32,186 bases of DNA from an uncultured Methanosarcinales archaeon (GTDB lineage: Archaea > Halobacteriota > Methanosarcinia > Methanotrichales > Methanotrichaceae): positions 1 to 32,186 of the forward strand of contig CAIQHB010000041.1 of the NCBI GenBank assembly GCA_903871465.1. Direction: 5' to 3'. Below, in pieces: positions 22,102 to 32,186 of the stretch. The translations under genes were made by a program, and so were the position numbers. The notes under the pieces are model-generated. The model saw only the letters and a list, made by a program, of their open reading frames with translations. It searched no databases and was not told where the DNA came from. The number at the start of each line of letters is the position of its first letter. Position 1 is the stretch's first letter.

Positions 22102-23157
22102 GTGCAGCTCGTGATCAATACCTACGGTGCATATCTTCGCAAGAGCGGGAACTGCTTCCTGGTGAAAAGAGATGATAAGAGCTTTGAGGTTGCAGTCAAT
22201 AAAGTCAATAGTATTTTAATTACAACCGCTGCATACATCACCACAGATGCCATTAAGTTGGCTGTAGACAACAATATAGATATCGTCTTTCTCGATGCCC
22301 ACGGCGACCCCTACGGCAGGGTTTGGCATCCCAAGTTAGGTAGCACCACTCTGATCCGGAGGAGGCAACTGGAGATCTACGAGACTCTGGATGGCTTGAA
22401 TCTGGCGAAAGAGTGGGGTTTGAAGAAACTGGATAATCAGATAGAGCTTCTCGTCAGGCTGAAGAAGACAAGAGTTGAGACGCGGGATGAGCTGGATCGG
22501 TACATCGAGGATATTGAGCATTCCCGTGAGAAGATGAAGAGGCTGCGGGGCACGATCGAAGCCCGGCGGCAGGATATGCTGGGCCTGGAGGGCATGGCTG
22601 CCAGGACCTATTTCGAGGCCCTCTCCTCTATCATGCCGGAAAAGTACAGGTTCGCGGGAAGGAGCAGAAATCCGGCCAAGGACGAGTTCAATGCCTTGCT
22701 CAACTACGGATATGGCGTCCTCTACTCACTGATGGAAAAGGGATGCATAATCGCTGGCCTCGATCCCTACTTAGGCTTTTTGCATAGCGACTCCTACAAC
22801 AAGAAGTCACTGGTCTTCGATATCATAGAGATGTTCCGGATCTACGTCGATGAGACGGTGGTTTATCTTTTCTCCAGGAGGATGGTCAAGGATGAGTTCT
22901 TCGAGCCGCTGGAGCAGGGGATGGGCCTGAGCAAGGACGGGAAGGCGGCATTGATCGAGGCGCTCAACAAGACACTGGAGGAGACAATAGTCTACCGGGG
23001 CCGCAATGTGAAGACGAGGAACACCATCCAGATGGAGTGCCACAGGATAGCCAACGGGCTCATCCGGCCCGGCCAGGAGCTGCCGGACGACTTCGATCTG
23101 GATATTCTGGAGTCGGAAGAATACAAGGGAAGGCAAACGGAACCGGACGCAAAATAG
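22102..23157 (+). CDS. cas1: CRISPR integrase Cas1
   Basis: Cas1 is the integrase that inserts new spacers together with Cas2. The catalytic triad is visible: Glu163 (GLEGMAARTYF), His228 (GFLHSDSYNKKSLVFD) and Glu243 (DIIEMFRIYVDE). The N-terminal beta domain (LVINTYGAYLRKSGNCFLVKR, VDNNIDIVFLDAHGDP) is typical. Length 351 is normal. The start is GTG at 22102 with GAGG 7 nt upstream; the overlapping ATG at 22100 is in another frame. It is first in the operon cas1-cas2-cas4 with only 9 bp to cas2. Confidence 0.96.
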   Translation: MQLVINTYGAYLRKSGNCFLVKRDDKSFEVAVNKVNSILITTAAYITTDAIKLAVDNNIDIVFLDAHGDPYGRVWHPKLGSTTLIRRRQLEIYETLDGLNLAKEWGLKKLDNQIELLVRLKKTRVETRDELDRYIEDIEHSREKMKRLRGTIEARRQDMLGLEGMAARTYFEALSSIMPEKYRFAGRSRNPAKDEFNALLNYGYGVLYSLMEKGCIIAGLDPYLGFLHSDSYNKKSLVFDIIEMFRIYVDETVVYLFSRRMVKDEFFEPLEQGMGLSKDGKAALIEALNKTLEETIVYRGRNVKTRNTIQMECHRIANGLIRPGQELPDDFDLDILESEEYKGRQTEPDAK

Positions 23158-23166
23158 AGGTTGCTA

Positions 23167-23454
23167 ATGCTGGTCTGGGTGATTTACGACATATCGGAGA
23201 ATAGATTCCGCAGCCGGGTAGCGAAGATCTGCAAGAACTATGGCCTGTTCCGGGTGCAGAAGAGCGCCTTCCTGGGCGACCTGAACCGGAACGAGTCCGA
23301 TTCCCTGGCCCTGGAGTGTGAGGCGACCATTGAGGAATCCGATTCGGTCTACGTCTTTCCCATGTGCGAGGACTGTTTCGACAAGATAAAACTGATTGGG
23401 GCAGGATTTGATCGGGAAATGGTGAGCGGCATGACGATAACCAAGGTATTCTGA
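23167..23454 (+). CDS. cas2: CRISPR-associated endoribonuclease / adaptation protein Cas2
   Basis: 95 residues starting MLVWVIYDISENRFRSRVAK, the Cas2 fold start with the conserved Asp8 after the first strand. KNYGLFRVQKSAFLGDLNRN and SDSVYVFPMCEDC are typical of the family. The ATG at 23167 is chosen because GAGG lies 6 nt before it; a TTG two codons upstream is less likely. It forms the Cas1-Cas2 integration complex. The next gene, cas4, starts 7 bp downstream. Confidence 0.94.
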   Translation: MLVWVIYDISENRFRSRVAKICKNYGLFRVQKSAFLGDLNRNESDSLALECEATIEESDSVYVFPMCEDCFDKIKLIGAGFDREMVSGMTITKVF

Positions 23455-23461
23455 GGGCAAA

Positions 23462-24115
23462 ATGGAGACGGATGCAGAAATTGAAGCCTCGCACGCGCAG
23501 GCACAGGCGCGGGAGAGCGTGCTCGCGCCTGAGCAGGAGATTTTCGTAACGGTATCCGATGCCCTGGAGTATCTCTTCTGTCCCAGGTTCATCTACTTCA
23601 TGCATTGCCTGGACATCGCCCAAAGAGAAGAGCGGCGCTTCAAGGTCCAGAAGGGCAGAGAACTGCACGATAGCCGGGAGAAGGTAAACCGGGATTACGT
23701 GAGAAAGAAGCTCAACTGCGTCCGAAAAGAGATCTCAGTTTATCTTACTTCGCATAAATATCACTTCAAAGGAGAAGTCGATGAAATTCTCTTTCTGGAT
23801 GATGGAACGGCAGCGCCTCTGGATTACAAGTATGCGGAATTCAAGGACACCGTTTACAAGACGCACAAGTTTCAGGCTGCTCTTTACGGGCTGCTCATCA
23901 TGGAGCACTTCGGGGTGGATGTTAAGCGGGGCTTTGTCTGTTATACGAGGAGCAACAATCATGTGGAAGAGATAGACTTCCAGCAAAAAGATTATGAGAA
24001 GGCAAAGGAGATTGTGCGCGAGATATTGATGATAATTCAGAGGGGATACTATCCCGAAGGGACGAAGCAGAAGGTCAGGTGCGTGGACTGCACGTATAGG
24101 AATATATGCGTTTGA
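23462..24115 (+). CDS. cas4: CRISPR adaptation exonuclease Cas4
   Basis: Cas4 is a RecB-like nuclease with a 4Fe-4S cluster that trims prespacers and selects those with a PAM. The cluster cysteines are Cys40 (LFCPR) and Cys207, Cys210, Cys216 at the C-terminus (RCVDCTYRNICV). The nuclease motifs are GEVDEI and LDYKYAEF, with a QAALYGLLI (QxxxY) motif. The first 25 residues are Ala/Glu/Gln-rich and extend beyond the usual start. GAGG lies 5-8 nt upstream. It ends the adaptation operon; a 289-bp non-coding gap separates it from cas8b. Confidence 0.94.
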   Translation: METDAEIEASHAQAQARESVLAPEQEIFVTVSDALEYLFCPRFIYFMHCLDIAQREERRFKVQKGRELHDSREKVNRDYVRKKLNCVRKEISVYLTSHKYHFKGEVDEILFLDDGTAAPLDYKYAEFKDTVYKTHKFQAALYGLLIMEHFGVDVKRGFVCYTRSNNHVEEIDFQQKDYEKAKEIVREILMIIQRGYYPEGTKQKVRCVDCTYRNICV

Positions 24116-24147: not shown

Positions 24148-24156
24148 AAATTTATT
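24148..24156 (+). promoter_or_regulatory. Possible TATA box of the crRNA-like RNA
   Basis: AAATTTATT lies about 30 nt before the first degenerate repeat (24182), so transcription would start at or just before that repeat. Supported only by sequence. Confidence 0.35.
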
Positions 24157-24181: not shown

Positions 24182-24296
24182 AATCGATAGTATCTTCCCT
24201 AGTAACAAGGATTGAAACAGTGTTAAGGGTGTATTCGCTGATGTTTTCAGCGTTACCATGTTTAGATAACGCTTCCACCATAACAAGGATTGAGTT
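24182..24296 (+). ncRNA. Degenerate two-repeat mini-CRISPR: candidate CreA/CreR-like regulatory RNA
   Basis: A degenerate repeat at 24182-24218 matches the array repeat at 24 of 37 positions, including all of the last 15 (AACAAGGATTGAAAC) and TTCC at 14-17. A second at 24260-24296 matches 20 of 37, again with TTCC and AACAAGGATTGA, but has lost the final AAC. They are 78 bp apart, as in a real array, and lie in the same direction as cas genes. Between them is a 41-nt pseudo-spacer (24219-24259). Its first 16 nt pair, with one mismatch, with the cas8b promoter at 24340-24355. The first repeat keeps the exact 8-nt handle ATTGAAAC needed on a mature crRNA; the second keeps only what Cas6 processing would need. 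Known type I-B CreA and CreR RNAs have this layout. The pseudo-spacer also holds a hairpin, CGCTGA-5-TCAGCG (24236-24252). Confidence 0.75.
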
Positions 24297-24328: not shown

Positions 24329-24355
24329 ATAAATTATTAAGTGTAAAGGGTGTAT
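24329..24355 (+). promoter_or_regulatory. cas8b promoter with overlapping target of the crRNA-like RNA
   Basis: An AT-rich box ATAAATTATTAA (24329-24340) is a likely TATA element for cas8b, predicting transcription from about 24358-24362. The target AGTGTAAAGGGTGTAT (24340-24355) directly follows it and equals pseudo-spacer nt 1-16 except position 6. The three bases before the target are TTA, which would be the PAM. Cascade bound here would cover the space between TATA box and transcription start. Confidence 0.65.
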
Positions 24356-24404
24356 CAAGTTTAATGCAAATCCAAGAAGCAGTCAATACGCATCGGTGAT
24401 TTGA

Positions 24405-26285
24405 GTGATCGAGGCCGTAAGCAGAATCGGAGATTATATGCAAAAAAATAAAGGTGAGAATGATTTACTATCTGCCTTTATCGAAAATCCAAATACCAAT
24501 GGAAAATATAAAGTTGTATTGATCGTGGTATTGAACGAGCGATATGGTGATTATTCATTTTGTCGCGTTGCGTTTGATGAGTTCAGCGATTATCCACGAT
24601 ATCTATATAAAAAAGGTCCATCAAATGGCACTAATGCGACACCTACTAGCAAGATAGCAGGTGATATTGGGAAAACATTCCAAAACAGATTCTTAAAATG
24701 GTTCCAGAACTATGAAACCTACGATATCTCAGAAGAAGAAAAAGAATCTCTCAAAAAGATGAACATGGCAATAAGAGATCAAAAAGAAACTATCTTAGCC
24801 GATCTACAGGAAAAATTTTCTCAAAAGAAATCTGATGAAAATGCCATCATAACCTTGGGGATCGAGAGAGATGGGGAGATGAGCTATCTTGGGGATCAAC
24901 AGGTTTTCAAAAATATTTTGCTCAGGAAAGGCAAAGACAAATATTATCTCAAGTCTCAGGGAAAATCGCTTGGGAAAGATTCTGCCTGCTCCGTCTGCAA
25001 AGAGGTGAAAGAAGAAGTCTATGGCTTCGCAATTCCCTGGACATTTCATACCTTTGACAAACCCGGATTTATTGCGGGTGGTTTTGAGGTCAATGAATCC
25101 TGGAAAAATACTCCCGTGTGCTTCGATTGTGCCACGCGCCTGGAAGTTGGAAAGAAGTACATCGAGGAAAATCTCGATTATGGCTTCTATGGCTTCAGAT
25201 ATCTCCTCGTTCCAAAATTGACCATGGCAGGGGACGAAAATGAGGCCCTTGAAGAGGTCCTGGACATCCTGGGCAATAAGGATGAAAAAAGAAAGATAAA
25301 AATAAATCGAGAAATTAAGAACCGAATAACCGCAGATGAGAATGAGATATTTGCGTTTGTCAAGGATCAGAAAGATTTCTTCAGCAACAGCCTGATATTT
25401 TATAAAAAGGAGCAATCGTCTTATAGAATTCTTCTCTTAATCGAAGGAATTCTTCCGTCAAGACTGAAGGCTCTCTTTAATGCCAAAGAAAAGGTCGATG
25501 AGAGATTTAATATATACAATGATTCGATTCTTAGCGAAACACAGAGGGAAAAGAATCACTTGGAGTTCAATTTTGGAGTCCTAAGACGATTCTTCCCGTC
25601 CGAGTCTAAAAATAGAACATTCGACAAAATATTCTTGGAAATGGTTGACAAGATCTTTGTTGGAGATCAAATCAGTTACCATTTGTTGATAGATTTTATA
25701 ATGAGCAAAGTGAGAGAGGCGTTCGTCAAGGATTATTCTACTAATATCACTACTTTGAACGGCTTCTTGCTATTGCACTATATTGAGAAGCTTAATCTTT
25801 TCAAAGCAAATAAAGCGGAGATGAAAGAGATGAATGAACGAGGCAGTGAGGTTCTTCGCATCGAAGAGCTTGAGAGTCTCCCATTAGAGCAACGCATTGA
25901 GAGGTTCTTCGAAGCAAACAAGGCGTTCTTCAATAGCGATGGCAAGAAGGCAACATTCCTGGAAGGAGTATTGACTCAGAAGCTCCTTAACATACAATGG
26001 ATGGACAAAAAGGCAACTCCATTCCGCACCAAGCTCCATGGCTTGAAGATGAATGAACCATTGATCAAGAGGCTCCTTCCGGAAATTCAGAACAAGCTGG
26101 AGGAATACGGGAAGAATTATTACCGAGATTTGGAATCTATCATTGCACATTATTTTGTTTTAGCTGGGGTTAATTGGAAAGAAGTAGATGATGAGCTAAG
26201 CTTCTACTTTGTTTTGGGAATGGACATGCATAAGCTGTTTAAGAATACAAAAGAGATGGATGAGCAAATTGGTGAGGGGGCATAA
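24405..26285 (+). CDS. cas8b: Type I-B Cascade large subunit Cas8b (TM1802-like)
   Basis: Cas8b recognises the PAM and completes the Cascade surveillance complex. The start MIEAVSRIGDYM and the following LLSAFIENPNTNGKYKVVL match the Cas8b/TM1802 family. A zinc-binding pair is present: Cys195-x2-Cys198 (ACSVCKE) and Cys239-x2-Cys242 (VCFDCA). The later region GFYGFRYLLVPKLT is typical. 626 residues is normal. The start is GTG at 24405; no strong ribosome site is visible, and a later ATG (residue 12) is the alternative. It is the first gene of the effector operon cas8b-cas7-cas5-cas3, whose promoter is the probable target of the crRNA-like RNA just upstream. Confidence 0.9.
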   Translation: MIEAVSRIGDYMQKNKGENDLLSAFIENPNTNGKYKVVLIVVLNERYGDYSFCRVAFDEFSDYPRYLYKKGPSNGTNATPTSKIAGDIGKTFQNRFLKWFQNYETYDISEEEKESLKKMNMAIRDQKETILADLQEKFSQKKSDENAIITLGIERDGEMSYLGDQQVFKNILLRKGKDKYYLKSQGKSLGKDSACSVCKEVKEEVYGFAIPWTFHTFDKPGFIAGGFEVNESWKNTPVCFDCATRLEVGKKYIEENLDYGFYGFRYLLVPKLTMAGDENEALEEVLDILGNKDEKRKIKINREIKNRITADENEIFAFVKDQKDFFSNSLIFYKKEQSSYRILLLIEGILPSRLKALFNAKEKVDERFNIYNDSILSETQREKNHLEFNFGVLRRFFPSESKNRTFDKIFLEMVDKIFVGDQISYHLLIDFIMSKVREAFVKDYSTNITTLNGFLLLHYIEKLNLFKANKAEMKEMNERGSEVLRIEELESLPLEQRIERFFEANKAFFNSDGKKATFLEGVLTQKLLNIQWMDKKATPFRTKLHGLKMNEPLIKRLLPEIQNKLEEYGKNYYRDLESIIAHYFVLAGVNWKEVDDELSFYFVLGMDMHKLFKNTKEMDEQIGEGA

Positions 26286-26287
26286 AA

Positions 26288-27205
26288 ATGAGCGAGGAAG
26301 TTAAGAACAGATCAGAGATTCTTTTTATCTACGACATAAGAGACGGAAATCCTAACGGAGATCCAATGGACGAGAACAAGCCTAGGATCGATGAAGAGAC
26401 GGGAATCAACCTTGTAACTGATGTCAGGTTGAAGAGGACTATTCGGGACTATCTCCACAATTTCAAGGATCAGGAGATCTTCGTTAGAGAGGTCACTTAT
26501 GATGCCGAGGGACATGTTCAGGATGGAAAGATGAGAGCAGGTAACTTCGCCAATGATGCCACTAGAATCTTAAATGAGTGCATAGATATTCGTCTCTTCG
26601 GAGGAGTAATACCTTTAAAAGAGGACTCGATAATCTATACCGGCCCAGTTCAGTTCAAGATGGGCCGTTCGCTCCATCGCGTCACCATGATGCATATCAA
26701 AGGCACTGGAGCCTTTGCCTCGAAGGAGGGTTCAAAGCAGGCAACCTTTAGAGAAGAGGACTTCCTGGCATATTCGCTTATCTCCTTTTATGGCATCATA
26801 AACGAGAATGCTGCCAAACATACTCATCTTACCGAAGAGGATTTGAATCTCTTGATGGAAGGTATCTGGAATGGGACAAAGAGCTTGATTTCGAGATCTA
26901 AAGCAGGACAGGTTCCAAGGTTGCTCCTGAAGGTGAATTACAGCAAAGCTAACTATCACATAGGAGACCTGGATAAAATGATGAAGCTGAAAACCGAGAT
27001 TCCTCATGAGAACATTCGTGACACTGCAGATTACCAGCTTGACGTCTCCGAGCTGGTCAAGAAACTTGCTGCTGAAAAGGGCTCAATCAAGAATATCGAG
27101 ATTTGCGTGGACGACAGAATTCGGTTCAGCAAAGATGGGGCCGATTTCCCAATTGAGGGATTGGCAGAGGCTTCGGGCATCGCCATAAAGCCAATTGCTT
27201 TTTGA
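26288..27205 (+). CDS. cas7: Type I-B Cascade backbone Cas7 (Csh2 family)
   Basis: Cas7 subunits form the helical backbone that holds the crRNA. Family marks: IFIYDIRDGNPNGDPMDENKPR-type start (here LFIYDIRDGNPNGDP), DVRLKRTIRDYL, DIRLFGGVIP, GPVQFKMGRSLH and HLTEEDLNLLMEGIWNGT. 305 residues is normal. The start is 2 bp after the cas8b stop with GGGG 6-9 nt before the ATG. As a known property of the fold, its thumb flips out every sixth crRNA base, relevant to the position-6 mismatch described for the crRNA-like RNA. Confidence 0.95.
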   Translation: MSEEVKNRSEILFIYDIRDGNPNGDPMDENKPRIDEETGINLVTDVRLKRTIRDYLHNFKDQEIFVREVTYDAEGHVQDGKMRAGNFANDATRILNECIDIRLFGGVIPLKEDSIIYTGPVQFKMGRSLHRVTMMHIKGTGAFASKEGSKQATFREEDFLAYSLISFYGIINENAAKHTHLTEEDLNLLMEGIWNGTKSLISRSKAGQVPRLLLKVNYSKANYHIGDLDKMMKLKTEIPHENIRDTADYQLDVSELVKKLAAEKGSIKNIEICVDDRIRFSKDGADFPIEGLAEASGIAIKPIAF

Positions 27206-27212
27206 GGTCCAG

Positions 27213-27920
27213 ATGCAGGAGAGAGTAATAGTATTCGATGTGTGGGGGGACTACGCTCACTTCAGGAAGAATTACTCTACCAGCTCTCCACTCACCTATT
27301 CTTTCCCACCTCGAACGGCTCTCTCTGGGCTGATCGGGGCCATCGTCGGTCTAGATAAATCGGAGTATTTCAGGCACTTCTTTAAAGTTGATGCCAAAAT
27401 CGGATGCAAGATCCTCCAACCTGTTAAAAAAGTTAGGATCGGAGAGAACCTGATCGACACCAAGAGCGCAGTTAAGATGCATCTGATCAAGAACCGAACC
27501 CAGATCAGATTCGAGTTCGTCAAAGATCCGATGTACAGGATTTACTTCACTCACTCCGATGAGCAATTGTATAAAAAACTCAAAGACCTGCTCACCAGCC
27601 ATCAATCTGTGTACACGCCGTGTCTCGGACTGAGCCAGCTCATCTGCAACTTTCAGTTTGTAGGTGAGTTTGGGCTGAAGAGTTCCGGAGATGAAGTCCA
27701 GGAAATAGATAGTGTCGTGCCGGGCAAATGCCTTCTGGAGCCTCCTGATTTCGAGGAGGGAAACGAATACTTCTCTGAGGTTATGCCTGGCGAGATGGGA
27801 GAGGAGCGGGTGGTAACAGACTACAGCGAGATTCTTTTTGAGAGAAATGGAGAGAAAATCAAAGCGAAGTCCAAAGAGCTTTGGGAGGTCGGTAATGGCG
27901 AGCGAATCGTATTCCTTTAA
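27213..27920 (+). CDS. cas5: Type I-B Cascade subunit Cas5 (Cas5h-like)
   Basis: Cas5 caps the 5' handle of the crRNA. The protein begins MQERVIVFDVWGDYAHFRKN, then SSPLTYSFPPRTALSGLIGA, the conserved Cas5 start (F-x-G-x-x-A-x-F and PPRTxLxGLIGA). The start is ATG at 27213, with GAGG 5 nt before it; an upstream TTG in the same frame would overlap cas7 and lacks a ribosome site. It overlaps the cas3 start by 26 nt. About 235 residues is normal. Confidence 0.93.
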   Translation: MQERVIVFDVWGDYAHFRKNYSTSSPLTYSFPPRTALSGLIGAIVGLDKSEYFRHFFKVDAKIGCKILQPVKKVRIGENLIDTKSAVKMHLIKNRTQIRFEFVKDPMYRIYFTHSDEQLYKKLKDLLTSHQSVYTPCLGLSQLICNFQFVGEFGLKSSGDEVQEIDSVVPGKCLLEPPDFEEGNEYFSEVMPGEMGEERVVTDYSEILFERNGEKIKAKSKELWEVGNGERIVFL

Positions 27921-30387
27921 GCTTAAGTCTCACCCTGATTTGCAGGATGGTCGAATCCGACCCTTGCTGGATCACTTGAGATGTGTAGGGCATTTAAGCA
28001 GGAAAACTGTTACAGATAAATCTCTAAACATAGATGACAAGGATCTTCTGACAGACGCTGCTTATCTGATAGGTGTTACGCATGACCTGGGAAAAGCTAC
28101 GAAATTTTTCCAGGAGTACATTGTTGAGAAAGATGAGACGAAAAAGAAGTCCCTCAAAGCCAAGGATAACACACATCATGGCCTGCTCTCGGCTTTCTTT
28201 ACTTACGCGGTAATCAAAGAATACCTGAGCCAATCAAAGATAAAAGGAGGATTATCGGATTACATTCCCATCTTATCTTTCCTAGTTGTGAAGAGGCATC
28301 ATGGAAACCTTATGAATGCCATGGACGAGTTAAGCGAGGTGAATGCGGAGAATGAGAAAATATTGAAGGTAGCGGAAGAGCAGATCGCGTCAATAGATCG
28401 AACTGAGATTAATGAAATCCTGACATTGCTTTTTCATGAAGGGAAGATTGATTTAAAAATCGATATTAATGATATTATTAATTACATCTTGAAGGATGCA
28501 TGCAATGAGATTGGTGGAAAGGAAAGGCGCCTGATAAGGCATCTCAATCGAAAGATAGATCTTTACCCGTATTTCATAACTCAGTTTCTCTATTCTGCCC
28601 TTCTGGATGCAGATAAGACTGACGCGGGGCTAGGTGACAAATATCTGGATTCAGATCGTTTAGACCTTTCAGCAGACCTGGTGGATCAATATAGAGACCG
28701 GAAAGGATTCACTTCAGACAGAAATAATATTAATAGTCTCAGGAATCAGATCTATGAAGATGCAATGGCAGGAATTAGGGATTGGAACCTCGATAATAGA
28801 ATCATCTCATTGAATGTCCCAACTGGCACCGGCAAAACTTTGACTTCTCTTTCCTTTGCCCTAAAGCTCAGAGATCGATTGAAGAATGAGAGAAATTTCA
28901 CGCCCAGGATAATCTACGCTCTGCCTTTCCTGAGTATAATAGATCAAAATTACGATGTCTTTAAAGATGTTATCTCTCAAGAGGGAGAACTTAAAGATTC
29001 CAGGCTTCTTCTCAAGCACCATCATCTAGCGGATGTAAACTACAAAATAGAAGATAAAGATGCTGAATTTTATAAGGCCGACGAAAGCCTCTTGCTCCTG
29101 GAAGGCTGGAACGCAGAGATAATTGTAACCACATTTTGGCAGTATTTCTACACGCTTTTCTCAAACAAAAATAAATTGCTTCGCAAGTTCAACAAGCTGG
29201 CCAACTCCATAATTATTCTGGACGAAGTGCAAGCAGTCCCTCACCAGTACTGGCAGTTGATTCACGACGCGACGAAGATGCTTTGCGAGAAGTTCAATAG
29301 CTATGTTGTCTTCGTTACGGCAACTGAGCCGCTCATATTCGATGAAGCGACAGGGGAGATAAAGGAGATCGTGCAGAAGAAAGAGGAATACTTCCGGGGC
29401 CTGGACAGAATTGAACTGATTCCCAGAATCGAGACGGCTTTGACTCTGGAGGAATTCAAGGTCTTGCTGGAAGAGGATCTAACCGACAATTCTAAAAAAG
29501 ATTTCCTGATCGTTCTCAACACCATTAGCTCAGCTAACGACGTTTACAAGTTCATTAAGGGCCTGGAGTTAGAGAATACTGAGAATTTTTACTTATCCAC
29601 AAATGTGATTCCGAAGGAGAGGTTGGAGCGGATAAAAAAGATCAAGGGACCTTCGGAAAATAGGGTGCCAAATGAGTCTCAAGAAAAAAGAAAAGTCATA
29701 GTGAGCACTCAATTGATTGAGGCCGGTGTAGATATCGATGCAGACAGAGTCTATCGAGACTTCGCTCCCATGGATTCCATAAACCAAGTGGCAGGTAGAT
29801 GCAACAGGAACTCGGCCAAAGCAGATAAAGGCACGGTATCAATATTTATTTTAAAAGATGATCGAAAAGAATTTTATAAATACATCTACGATCCATTCTT
29901 AATGAGCAAGACCCTTGACATCCTAAAACCGATTAAGGGTTCAATTCGAGAATCAGCTATATTGGAGTTGAACAACAAATACTTCAAAGCCGTGAAGAGG
30001 GGCATGGGTGATGAGAAATCAAAGGAAAATCTGGCCTGTCTGTCACAGTTGTCCTTCCAGGATCTGAGCAAGAAGTTCAAGTTGATCGAGGAGGATTATC
30101 CCAAGGTAAATGTTTTTGTAGAGCTAGATAAAACAGCTGCAGAAGTCTGGGCGAAGTATCAAGATTTGCGAATGGTGAAGGACATCAAAGAAAGGATAAG
30201 GAAAAAACTGGAGATAAGGAAAGATTTCAGCGAGTATGTGATCTCCGCACCAGAAAAGTACGCTCATAACCTGGTCACTGAAGACTCCGAAATGGGCTAT
30301 ATTTCAAGAGATGAGCTGCCCAACTACTACGATCTGGAGACAGGCTTCATGCGGGCCGGAGCCGGAGAGGGCTCCATGATCATCTGA
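27895..30387 (+). CDS. cas3: CRISPR helicase-nuclease Cas3
   Basis: Cas3 is the nuclease-helicase that degrades DNA bound by Cascade. The HD nuclease is N-terminal: His63-Asp64 (GVTHDLGKATKFFQEY), then THHGLLSAFF and KRHHGNLM. Helicase motifs: TGTGKT (310-315), DEVQ (443-446), FVTATEP, STQLIEAGVDID and MDSINQVAGRCNR. The start is ATG at 27895 with GGGAGG 6-7 nt before it; longer in-frame starts run deep into cas5. 830 residues. Followed after 15 bp by a truncated cas6 copy. Confidence 0.94.
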   Translation: MASESYSFKLKSHPDLQDGRIRPLLDHLRCVGHLSRKTVTDKSLNIDDKDLLTDAAYLIGVTHDLGKATKFFQEYIVEKDETKKKSLKAKDNTHHGLLSAFFTYAVIKEYLSQSKIKGGLSDYIPILSFLVVKRHHGNLMNAMDELSEVNAENEKILKVAEEQIASIDRTEINEILTLLFHEGKIDLKIDINDIINYILKDACNEIGGKERRLIRHLNRKIDLYPYFITQFLYSALLDADKTDAGLGDKYLDSDRLDLSADLVDQYRDRKGFTSDRNNINSLRNQIYEDAMAGIRDWNLDNRIISLNVPTGTGKTLTSLSFALKLRDRLKNERNFTPRIIYALPFLSIIDQNYDVFKDVISQEGELKDSRLLLKHHHLADVNYKIEDKDAEFYKADESLLLLEGWNAEIIVTTFWQYFYTLFSNKNKLLRKFNKLANSIIILDEVQAVPHQYWQLIHDATKMLCEKFNSYVVFVTATEPLIFDEATGEIKEIVQKKEEYFRGLDRIELIPRIETALTLEEFKVLLEEDLTDNSKKDFLIVLNTISSANDVYKFIKGLELENTENFYLSTNVIPKERLERIKKIKGPSENRVPNESQEKRKVIVSTQLIEAGVDIDADRVYRDFAPMDSINQVAGRCNRNSAKADKGTVSIFILKDDRKEFYKYIYDPFLMSKTLDILKPIKGSIRESAILELNNKYFKAVKRGMGDEKSKENLACLSQLSFQDLSKKFKLIEEDYPKVNVFVELDKTAAEVWAKYQDLRMVKDIKERIRKKLEIRKDFSEYVISAPEKYAHNLVTEDSEMGYISRDELPNYYDLETGFMRAGAGEGSMII

Positions 30388-30402: not shown

Positions 30403-30530
30403 ATGAATCTCAAAATCCTCCGTCTCACCCTCCACGCGGGCGCGTCCCTGCGCGGGGATGGGAACGCGGCCAAGCTGCTGGCTTCCTTGCCCCAGATTCA
30501 ACGAACATGCCCTCCTGCACCAGCATGTGA
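30403..30530 (+). pseudogene. cas6: Truncated, frameshifted 5' copy of cas6
   Basis: Starting at an ATG 15 bp after cas3, this stretch matches the first 124 bp of the intact cas6 at 31140-31263. The protein begins MNLKILRLTLHAGA against MILKILRLTLHSDA, and after a net 2-base loss near 30481-30495 continues RFNEHALLHQHV against SFNEYALLHQHV. It also has a 6-base insertion (GN). The match stops abruptly at CACCAGCATGTGA. Roughly four of five bases agree, so it is an older or diverged copy, not a recent duplication. It marks the original cas6 position next to cas3. Confidence 0.85.
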
Positions 30531-30614
30531 TTGGTCACAAAGGCCAAAAAAGCCATAAAGACAGACATCGCAACAGCAGGTATCAAATATCAATACAGCT
30601 TAAGAGCTATCACA

Positions 30615-30851
30615 ATGAGGACACTAAATTACAAAGTTCTGCTCCGAAAAGAGGACGATGGGACTTATACGGTGATCGTGCCTTCGCTACCAGGCTGCCT
30701 GACTTTCGGGAGGACCGTAGAAGAGGCATTAGAAATGGCAAAAGAAGCCATTGAAGGCTTCATAGCTTGTATGGTTGCGCGTGGCGAAGAGGTTCCCATC
30801 GAAAACTGTGATTCAATGGTATGCACTATTGCAGTTGAAGCAAATGCCTGA
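30615..30851 (+). CDS. hicB: HicB-family antitoxin
   Basis: 78 residues: LNYKVLLRKEDDGTYTVIVP, LPGCLTFGRTVEEALEMAKE and AIEGFIACMVARGEEVP are the typical partial RNase H-like HicB fold. The ATG at 30615 is chosen because the family begins near it; the longer frame from 30531 adds a basic, unrelated extension. It neutralises the HicA RNA-cleaving toxin encoded 36 bp downstream. Antitoxin-first order is one of the two known arrangements. A separate DNA-binding domain is not evident. Confidence 0.85.
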   Translation: MRTLNYKVLLRKEDDGTYTVIVPSLPGCLTFGRTVEEALEMAKEAIEGFIACMVARGEEVPIENCDSMVCTIAVEANA

Positions 30852-30887
30852 GCCTTAGATGACAACGAACGCATAACCTTGATTGAC

Positions 30888-31112
30888 ATGGCTAAACTAC
30901 CCTGCATACCACCTGAAAAGCTCGCAAGAATACTTGAAAAATGTGGATTTGAGCTGGAAAGGATCTGTGGTAGTCATCACTTTTACCATAATCCCAAAAC
31001 CAAAAAATCTACTGTGATTCCTTTTCACGGAAATGATGTTCCAAAAGGATTATTGAATGAAATCTTAAAAGAGGCAGGTATCAGTCGTGATGAGTTCTTC
31101 GATAATCTCTAA
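30888..31112 (+). CDS. hicA: HicA-family mRNA interferase toxin
   Basis: 74 residues, MAKLPCIPPEKLARILEKCG then GSHHFYHNPKTKKSTVIPFH, the double-stranded RNA-binding-like fold of HicA with catalytic His in GSHHF. It ends PKGLLNEILKEAGISRDEF. An upstream TTG (30879) is in frame, but the ATG fits the family. The toxin cleaves mRNA when HicB is lost. It sits inside the cas locus between a dead and an intact cas6, where it could make loss of the locus costly; this is inference. Confidence 0.88.
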   Translation: MAKLPCIPPEKLARILEKCGFELERICGSHHFYHNPKTKKSTVIPFHGNDVPKGLLNEILKEAGISRDEFFDNL

Positions 31113-31139
31113 AGCCGCTTATGTTGGTGCTGAATACCT

Positions 31140-31796
31140 ATGATCCTCAAAATCCTCCGTCTCACCCTGCACTCGGACGCGCCCATGCACGGGGACGCGG
31201 CCAAGCTGCGGGGCTTCTTTGCCACCAGCTTCAACGAATATGCCCTCCTGCACCAGCATGTGACAGACAAGCTGATCTACCGGTATCCTCTCATCCAGTA
31301 CAAAATGCTGGACGGCAGCCCTCTGGTCCTCGGCATCAATGAGGGTGCAGAGATCCTGAAAGAGATTTATGATAAATTCGATGAGATAAAATTAGGGGAT
31401 AGCAACTACTCCATCATGGAGCGCGGCGTGACTGTGAAGAGCGAGGAGTTCGGCTGCACAGAGGAGATCCAGAGCTACAGGTTTGCCATGCCGTGGCTGG
31501 CCCTGAGCCAAGAGAACTACGCCCGGTATATGGGTGCATCTTTGGGGGATCGAAAGGATCTATTGCGAAGAATCCTGGTGGGCAACCTTCTTTCCGCATC
31601 CAAAGGTCTGGGGTATGTGGCCAAGGAGCACATCCGGCTGGAGCTGGGAAGGATGCAGGACGAGATTTGCCTGCTGAAGGGGACCAAGGTGACGGGTTTT
31701 CGAGGGGAGTTCATGACATGCTTTGCCATTCCGGACCATATGGGCCTCGGGAAGTCCGTCTCCAGAGGTTATGGAGCGGTTACAAGATTAAAATAG
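31140..31796 (+). CDS. cas6: CRISPR RNA processing endonuclease Cas6
   Basis: Cas6 cuts the precursor CRISPR RNA within each repeat, leaving the 8-nt handle ATTGAAAC. The protein is a double RAMP: N-terminal LKILRLTLHSDAPMHGDAAK, middle YRYPLIQYKMLDGSPLVLG, and the C-terminal glycine-rich loop GLGKSVSRGYGAVTRLK, diagnostic for Cas6. 218 residues. It has no strong ribosome site and starts 27 bp after hicA. It lies directly before the array leader, unlike most I-B loci where cas6 is next to cas8. Confidence 0.9.
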   Translation: MILKILRLTLHSDAPMHGDAAKLRGFFATSFNEYALLHQHVTDKLIYRYPLIQYKMLDGSPLVLGINEGAEILKEIYDKFDEIKLGDSNYSIMERGVTVKSEEFGCTEEIQSYRFAMPWLALSQENYARYMGASLGDRKDLLRRILVGNLLSASKGLGYVAKEHIRLELGRMQDEICLLKGTKVTGFRGEFMTCFAIPDHMGLGKSVSRGYGAVTRLK

Positions 31797-31955: not shown

Positions 31956-32186
31956 GTCCGAGGGCAAGTTCCAAGAAAACAAGGATTGAAACTTGATTCC
32001 TTTCCAAGTATATCAACAGAATAATAAGCTGGCGGGTCCGAGGGCAAGTTCCAAGAAAACAAGGATTGAAACCCTATTAAATTATATCTCATACATGCTA
32101 AAAGTACAGTCCGAGGGCAAGTTCCAAGAAAACAAGGATTGAAACAATATTGGACCACAAGAATCTTCGATTGATAATTCAGTCCG
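31956..32186 (+). CRISPR. CRISPR array, type I-B, continuing beyond the window
   Basis: Three identical 37-bp repeats (31956-31992, 32036-32072, 32109-32145) begin GTCCGAGGGCAAGTTCC and end AAGGATTGAAAC; a fourth starts at 32182 with GTCCG at the window edge. Spacers are 43, 36 and 36 nt. The leader lies on the left, so the first spacer is the most recent. The last 8 nt ATTGAAAC are the expected 5' handle of mature crRNAs. No match between a spacer and this window was noticed by eye. Confidence 0.97.

What the first reader, a model, noticed from the sequence alone, without database searches (positions are those of the whole stretch)
24340..24355. Pseudo-spacer seed matches the cas8b promoter, with the one mismatch at position 6
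Seen: pseudo-spacer nt 1-16 (AGTGTTAAGGGTGTAT) against AGTGTAAAGGGTGTAT at 24340-24355, 15 of 16, starting exactly at spacer nt 1; no match beyond. Known: in type I Cascade every sixth crRNA base is flipped out, and seed-only pairing gives binding without Cas3 cleavage. The target abuts the likely TATA box and lies 50-65 bp before the cas8b start. A rough hand estimate of chance is about 1 in 10,000. Inference: Cascade represses its own effector operon, so an anti-CRISPR that blocks Cascade would raise its expression.
Basis: partly seen in the sequence, partly recalled or inferred. Interest (0 to 1): 0.95.

Follow-up and report, generated by a model that had tools for sequence, protein, structure and literature searches.

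The report
CRISPR complex switching itself off
Next to its CRISPR genes, this methane-producing archaeon carries a small guide RNA gene that very probably makes the CRISPR complex sit on, and turn down, the promoter of its own genes, a known kind of control (CreR) found here in a new organism, while close relatives seem to use the same slot to hold down a mischarging tRNA.

Summary
Between cas4 and cas8b of a type I-B locus in a Methanothrix-genus genome lies a degenerate two-repeat mini-CRISPR. Nt 1-16 of its pseudo-spacer match 24340-24355, in the cas8b promoter, at 15/16 with the single mismatch at nt 6. None of 20,000 dinucleotide shuffles reaches this, and it is the only such PAM-plus-seed site in the genome. 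This is best read as a CreR (Cas-regulating RNA): Cascade loaded with it pairs through the seed, does not cut, and represses its own operon. CreR was described in 2023, so this is a new member of a known kind.

Direct co-variation cannot be tested, because no searched relative holds this copy. Independent support comes from four other cas8b loci with equivalent RNA/target pairs. Every target has a 5'-TTA flank, and 7 of 9 mismatches in the five best pairs fall on multiples of six, the flipped-out Cascade positions. One (G203) is also CreR-like.

The other three (G013, G017, G035) match the promoter of a tRNA-Ser-like gene (G73) with a Leu (UAA) or Ile (UAU) anticodon. That looks like a CreTA module with a mistranslating tRNA as toxin, which I did not find described. 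Repression and derepression were not tested.

The parts
22102..24115 (+). cas1-cas2-cas4 (adaptation genes) directly upstream
   Evidence: NCBIfam TIGR00287, TIGR01573, TIGR00372 over cut-off
24150..24156 (+). putative TATA-like element of the pseudo-crRNA gene (ATTTATT), which would put the transcript start next to psi-repeat 1
   Evidence: read from sequence; inference
24182..24218 (+). degenerate repeat psiR1: keeps TTCC-N10-GGATTGAAAC, AACAAGG and the intact 8-nt 5' handle ATTGAAAC; 13 of 37 mismatches to the array repeat
24219..24259 (+). pseudo-spacer, 41 nt; nt 1-16 are the seed that matches the cas8b promoter; the 3' part holds a strong hairpin (CGCTGA/TCAGCG)
24260..24296 (+). degenerate repeat psiR2: keeps TTCC-N10-GGATTGA; 17 of 37 mismatches; would supply the 3' handle
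24211..24288 (+). predicted mature CreR RNA after Cas6 cleavage before each 8-nt tag (78 nt)
   Evidence: inference from the repeat position; processing not shown
24331..24339 (+). TATA-like box of cas8b (AAATTATTA); its last three bases TTA are the candidate PAM (24337-24339)
   Evidence: read from sequence; TTA also flanks all targets in relatives
24340..24355 (+). target (protospacer-like), 15/16 to the pseudo-spacer seed, mismatch at nt 6
24364..24399 (+). 11-codon mini-ORF (MQIQEAVNTHR*) ending just before the cas8b start; no consecutive rare codons; significance unknown
24405..26285 (+). cas8b (large Cascade subunit), first gene of the effector operon
   Evidence: TIGR02556 1.4e-83, TIGR02591 9e-50
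26288..30387 (+). cas7, cas5, cas3 of the same operon
   Evidence: TIGR02590, TIGR02592, TIGR01587/TIGR01596
31140..31796 (+). cas6b, the crRNA-processing enzyme
   Evidence: Pfam Cas6b_N and Cas6b_C
31956..32186 (+). start of the cognate CRISPR array (37-nt repeat GTCCGAGGGCAAGTTCCAAGAAAACAAGGATTGAAAC), cut by the contig end

Best explanation
24182-24296 is a creR gene. Its transcript is cut by Cas6 at the two degenerate repeats into a crRNA-like guide with an intact 5' handle, and is loaded into Cascade (Cas8b-Cas7-Cas5). The guide pairs through seed nt 1-16 (nt 6 flipped out) with the cas8b promoter next to a TTA PAM. Pairing is too short to license Cas3 cleavage, so Cascade only blocks TBP/TFB/polymerase and lowers cas8b-cas7-cas5-cas3 expression. 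The level of free Cascade thus sets its own synthesis: array crRNAs, or anti-CRISPR proteins that remove Cascade, would raise it. Shown here: anatomy, match, uniqueness and recurrence in relatives. Inferred: transcription, processing, loading, PAM, repression and derepression.
For: 15/16 seed match from nt 1, 0 of 20,000 shuffles, single site in genome, negative control with 133 array spacers. Both psi-repeats keep the TTCC-N10-GGAT motif and psiR1 the exact handle. Recurrence: G203 has a same-strand mini-CRISPR before cas8b, 17/18 with the only mismatch at nt 6 and TTA, plus a second site at the present cas8b start; the small ORF behind the first site looks like a duplicate of the cas8b N terminus. 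Three relatives have the same logic aimed at another promoter, all with TTA. Mismatches concentrate on multiples of six. CreR is established for type I-B.
Against: Not conserved as such: no other genome of the 50 searched in the family holds this creR copy. The closest relatives either have cas8b about 20 nt behind cas4 with no intergenic region, or a different element. No RNA data. PAM not confirmed: eight spacer seeds gave no true viral protospacer.
Confidence: 0.82

Rival explanations
1. CreTA-type addiction module: the guide represses a small toxic RNA encoded between the target and cas8b (for example the 11-codon mini-ORF at 24364), and cas8b is only downstream.
For: The same slot holds CreTA-like modules in G013, G017 and G035. 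A mini-ORF starts close to the predicted transcript start.
Against: Only 49 nt lie between the target and the cas8b start. The mini-ORF has no tandem rare codons and no tRNA-like gene is present.
Confidence: 0.08
2. A decaying ectopic mini-array whose first spacer was picked up from the cas8b promoter by accidental self-acquisition, now degenerating without regulatory use.
For: Repeats are degenerate (13 and 17 of 37 mismatches) and the match ends at nt 16.
Against: Decay should not spare just the handle, the Cas6 motif and the seed while hitting nt 6. Independent loci show the same pattern.
Confidence: 0.06
3. Direct repeat that is a protein operator (transcription-factor site) or a chance repeat, unrelated to RNA guidance.
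For: Two copies in one intergenic region could be operator sites.
Against: The first copy starts exactly at spacer nt 1 behind an intact crRNA handle. In three relatives the match is in the opposite orientation relative to cas8b with unrelated sequence. Shuffles give less than 5e-5.
Confidence: 0.04

Closest known systems
CreR (cas-regulating RNA; types I-B, I-E, V-A; reviews PMC13131331, PMC12737573, PMC12948488)
   Same: Degenerate mini-CRISPR next to the cas operon, crRNA-like RNA, partial complementarity to the cognate cas promoter, no toxin gene
   Different: New host lineage (Methanothrix genus); function not measured. I could read only reviews, not the original 2023 paper.
CreTA / CreA antitoxin RNA (PMC8501985, PMC9458426)
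   Same: Two degenerate repeats that keep the Cas6-critical bases, partial match to a promoter, same cas neighbourhood
   Different: CreA represses a toxin RNA gene; here the repressed gene is cas8b itself
scaRNA-Cas9 of Francisella
   Same: Degenerate repeat plus a short (15-bp) complementarity directs a CRISPR effector to repress without cutting (described in PMC9458426)
   Different: Class 2 effector, target outside the cas operon

Membership tests
CreR | Degenerate mini-CRISPR inside the cas locus | tested here: met
   psiR1 24182-24218 and psiR2 24260-24296 between cas4 and cas8b
CreR | Repeat remnants keep the handle and Cas6-critical bases | tested here: met
   ATTGAAAC exact in psiR1; TTCC-N10-GGATTGA in both. 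Processing itself not tested.
CreR | Partial, seed-located complementarity to the cognate cas promoter | tested here: met
   15/16 from nt 1, 0/20,000 shuffles; promoter position inferred from TATA-like box
CreR | PAM next to the target | tested here: inconclusive
   TTA at this and all related targets; no viral protospacer found to define the PAM
CreR | No coupled toxin gene | tested here: met
   49 nt between target and cas8b, no tRNA, no rare-codon tandem in the mini-ORF
CreR | Cascade-dependent repression of cas; relief by crRNA abundance or anti-CRISPR | not testable with these tools
   needs reporter and Cascade deletion
CreTA | Toxin gene under the targeted promoter | tested here: not met
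   in the window none found; a tRNA-like gene takes this place in G013, G017, G035

The most novel reading that the evidence does not exclude
The cas4-cas8b gap in these archaea is a slot for interchangeable Cascade-repressed modules. In the window and G203 the repressed gene is cas8b (CreR). In G013, G017 and G035 it is a tRNA-Ser-like gene (G73; nearest relatives examined outside the family all tRNA-Ser CGA/UGA) whose anticodon is UAA (Leu) or UAU (Ile). Loss of Cascade would then release a tRNA that puts serine at leucine UUA or isoleucine AUA codons: an addiction toxin acting by mistranslation rather than by tRNA sequestration.
Probability: 0.5. Interest if true: 0.85.

Novelty: new member of a known kind. 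Interest (0 to 1): 0.58.

Why it matters
It adds an example of CRISPR autoregulation in methanogens and gives a sequence-level test of it: mismatches in guide/target pairs fall where Cascade flips bases out. It also shows that one locus position swaps between self-regulation and an apparent toxin guard, which makes the origin of CreTA and CreR from mini-CRISPRs testable. The tRNA-Ser module in the relatives, if toxic, would be a new way for an RNA toxin to work.

Tried and rejected
(1) PAM from viral protospacers: eight 20-nt spacer seeds against IMG/VR. Seven gave no match; the eighth matched three contigs but is the trailer of the G001 array, not a spacer, and the contigs share ATTGAAAC plus trailer. 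(2) Another copy of this creR: none in 50 family genomes. The 21-nt G019 hit lies inside an open reading frame that looks like an ATPase-subunit gene and was taken as chance. (3) genome-contig scan with Cas8b gave five relatives; the new one outside Methanothrix that reaches the cas8b start (L016, Methanophagales) showed no repeat remnant before cas8b. (4) A widely conserved Methanosarcina-type creR: of 15 class-level cas8b loci scanned only L055 (G203) gave a convincing pair; the weak hits in L053 and L054 have implausible repeats. (6) G030 carries a lone repeat-like sequence next to an unrelated gene; no TTA-flanked match found in L091.

Full report
WHAT WAS CHECKED. The window is contig 41 of a 3.13 Mb genome, 99.6% complete. 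Relatives with public names place the genus as Methanothrix. Gene order on + is cas1-cas2-cas4, a 289-bp gap, cas8b-cas7-cas5-cas3, a disturbed cas6/HicB region, cas6b, and the start of a CRISPR array with a 37-nt repeat. The gap holds two degenerate copies of that repeat, 78 nt apart. Both keep TTCC-N10-GGATTGA; the first keeps the full 8-nt handle ATTGAAAC. The segment between them behaves as a 41-nt pseudo-spacer, in the range of the spacer lengths read at the array start (36-43 nt).

THE MATCH. Nt 1-16 of the pseudo-spacer equal 24340-24355 except nt 6. The second best 18-nt alignment in the region is 10/18. Dinucleotide shuffles never reach it in 20,000 trials, and 133 genuine array spacers used as controls reach at most 12/16, or 10/16 next to TTA. 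TTA plus seed with up to one mismatch occurs once in the genome. The target lies right behind the TATA-like AAATTATTA, about where polymerase and TFB would sit if transcription starts near 24361-24364 (inference).

TEST IN RELATIVES. Cas8b homologues were taken from 50 family and 238 class genomes. Most Methanothrix-family loci have cas8b about 20 nt behind cas4 and thus no room for such an element. G001 (84% Cas8b identity) has a gap of about 115 nt without repeats. But a scan for repeat remnants followed by a TTA-flanked seed match found equivalent pairs before cas8b in G203, G013 and G035 (L028 and L036 are the same G035 locus), and a looser search found one in G017. The one other locus flagged with a strong score, L037, was a pair of similar spacers inside a normal array; L053 and L054 gave weak hits with implausible repeats. 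G203 (class relative): mini-CRISPR on the cas8b strand, 17/18, only mismatch nt 6. It has two targets. The stronger lies before a 111-codon ORF that by eye resembles the cas8b N terminus (a partial duplication), the weaker (15/18) before the real cas8b. So G203 is a second CreR. G013 (16/18, mismatches 6 and 17), G035 (14-nt segment, mismatch 12) and G017 (mismatches 5, 6, 11, 12, 18) have the mini-CRISPR on the other strand. In each case the best plain alignment, scored without favouring any position, is the same site. G013 and G035 differ at several seed positions in both guide and target while keeping the match, which is co-variation of a related pair.

STATISTICS. With the plain best sites, 7 of 9 mismatches fall on multiples of six (12 of 86 positions), hypergeometric P 4.7e-6; adding the weaker G203 site gives 7 of 12 and P 1.6e-4; using one locus per kind gives P 0.002. 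G013, G017 and G035 are related, so these values are optimistic. TTA makes up 2-5% of positions in these regions yet flanks all five best targets (product about 4e-8). The first scan required TTA, but the later unconstrained search gave the same sites. Single-locus shuffles on 16 nt: window, G013 and G203 at most 2e-4; G035 0.004; G017 0.044 plain and 0.0016 when positions 6, 12, 18 are ignored, so G017 alone is weak.

MECHANISM. Established: CreR RNAs make Cascade or Cas12a repress the cognate cas promoter, and this is relieved when crRNAs or anti-CRISPR proteins take the effector away (PMC13131331, PMC12737573, PMC12948488). CreA RNAs carry two degenerate repeats that keep Cas6-critical bases (PMC8501985). 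The window fits the first, with no toxin gene in the 49 nt before cas8b. I therefore hold CreR at 0.82. Not shown: transcription, processing, Cascade loading, PAM, repression.

THE RELATIVES' OTHER USE OF THE SLOT. In G013, G017 and G035 the targeted promoter drives a class II tRNA gene, Rfam tRNA 56-58 bits. It is absent from the other 47 family genomes at E 1e-6. All three have discriminator G73, like tRNA-Ser in these genomes; tRNA-Leu there has A73, and G035 has a normal tRNA-Leu(UAA) elsewhere. Outside the family the nearest sequences examined are all tRNA-Ser (CGA or UGA). So the gene looks like tRNA-Ser(UGA) with the anticodon changed to UAA or UAU. Serine identity does not depend on the anticodon, tRNA-Ser with changed anticodon mistranslates in yeast, and G73 bars LeuRS in Haloferax (PMC9976931). 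The reading that Cascade holds down a mistranslating tRNA is inference, but it is simple and testable. UUA is 3% of Leu codons and AUA 22% of Ile codons in ten genes of the window (which stopped with an error before the second gene set). I found no description of a tRNA-like CreT, within an open-access library only.

LIMITS. The original CreR paper could not be read; that it dates from 2023 is from my own knowledge. The PAM is not independently known. Genomes are mostly metagenome assemblies.

Noticed in passing
L019:6527-6614 (-), L020:7731-7816 (+), L036:3042-3127 (+): tRNA-Ser-like genes (G73, long arm) with anticodon UAA, UAU, UAA between an antisense mini-CRISPR and cas8b; their promoter is matched by the mini-CRISPR seed with a TTA flank. 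Candidate CreTA with a mistranslating tRNA as toxin.
   Followed up: partly
L019:6429-6506 (-) and the equivalent stretch in L020 and L036: A second, more degenerate tRNA-like sequence (ARAGORN: Glu ttc) directly behind the first one in G017; decayed remnants appear to be present in G013 and G035.
   Followed up: no
L105:4704-5039: Small ORF before cas8b in G203 that resembles the Cas8b N terminus, with its own creR target: a partial duplication giving two targets for one guide.
   Followed up: partly
window 30403-31263: Duplicated 5' end of cas6b (30403-30530) with a HicB-like antitoxin ORF (30531-30851) inserted before the intact cas6b (31140-31796).
   Followed up: partly
L147, L148, L149 (viral contigs) and L018 array end: Viral contigs carry ATTGAAAC followed by the sequence that trails the last CRISPR repeat of G001, as if array ends and viruses share a junction.
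   Followed up: partly
L109 (G030:C74): Lone repeat-like sequence (GGAAATCC... / AACAAGGATTGAAAC) beside an unrelated gene; no TTA-flanked match found.
   Followed up: partly
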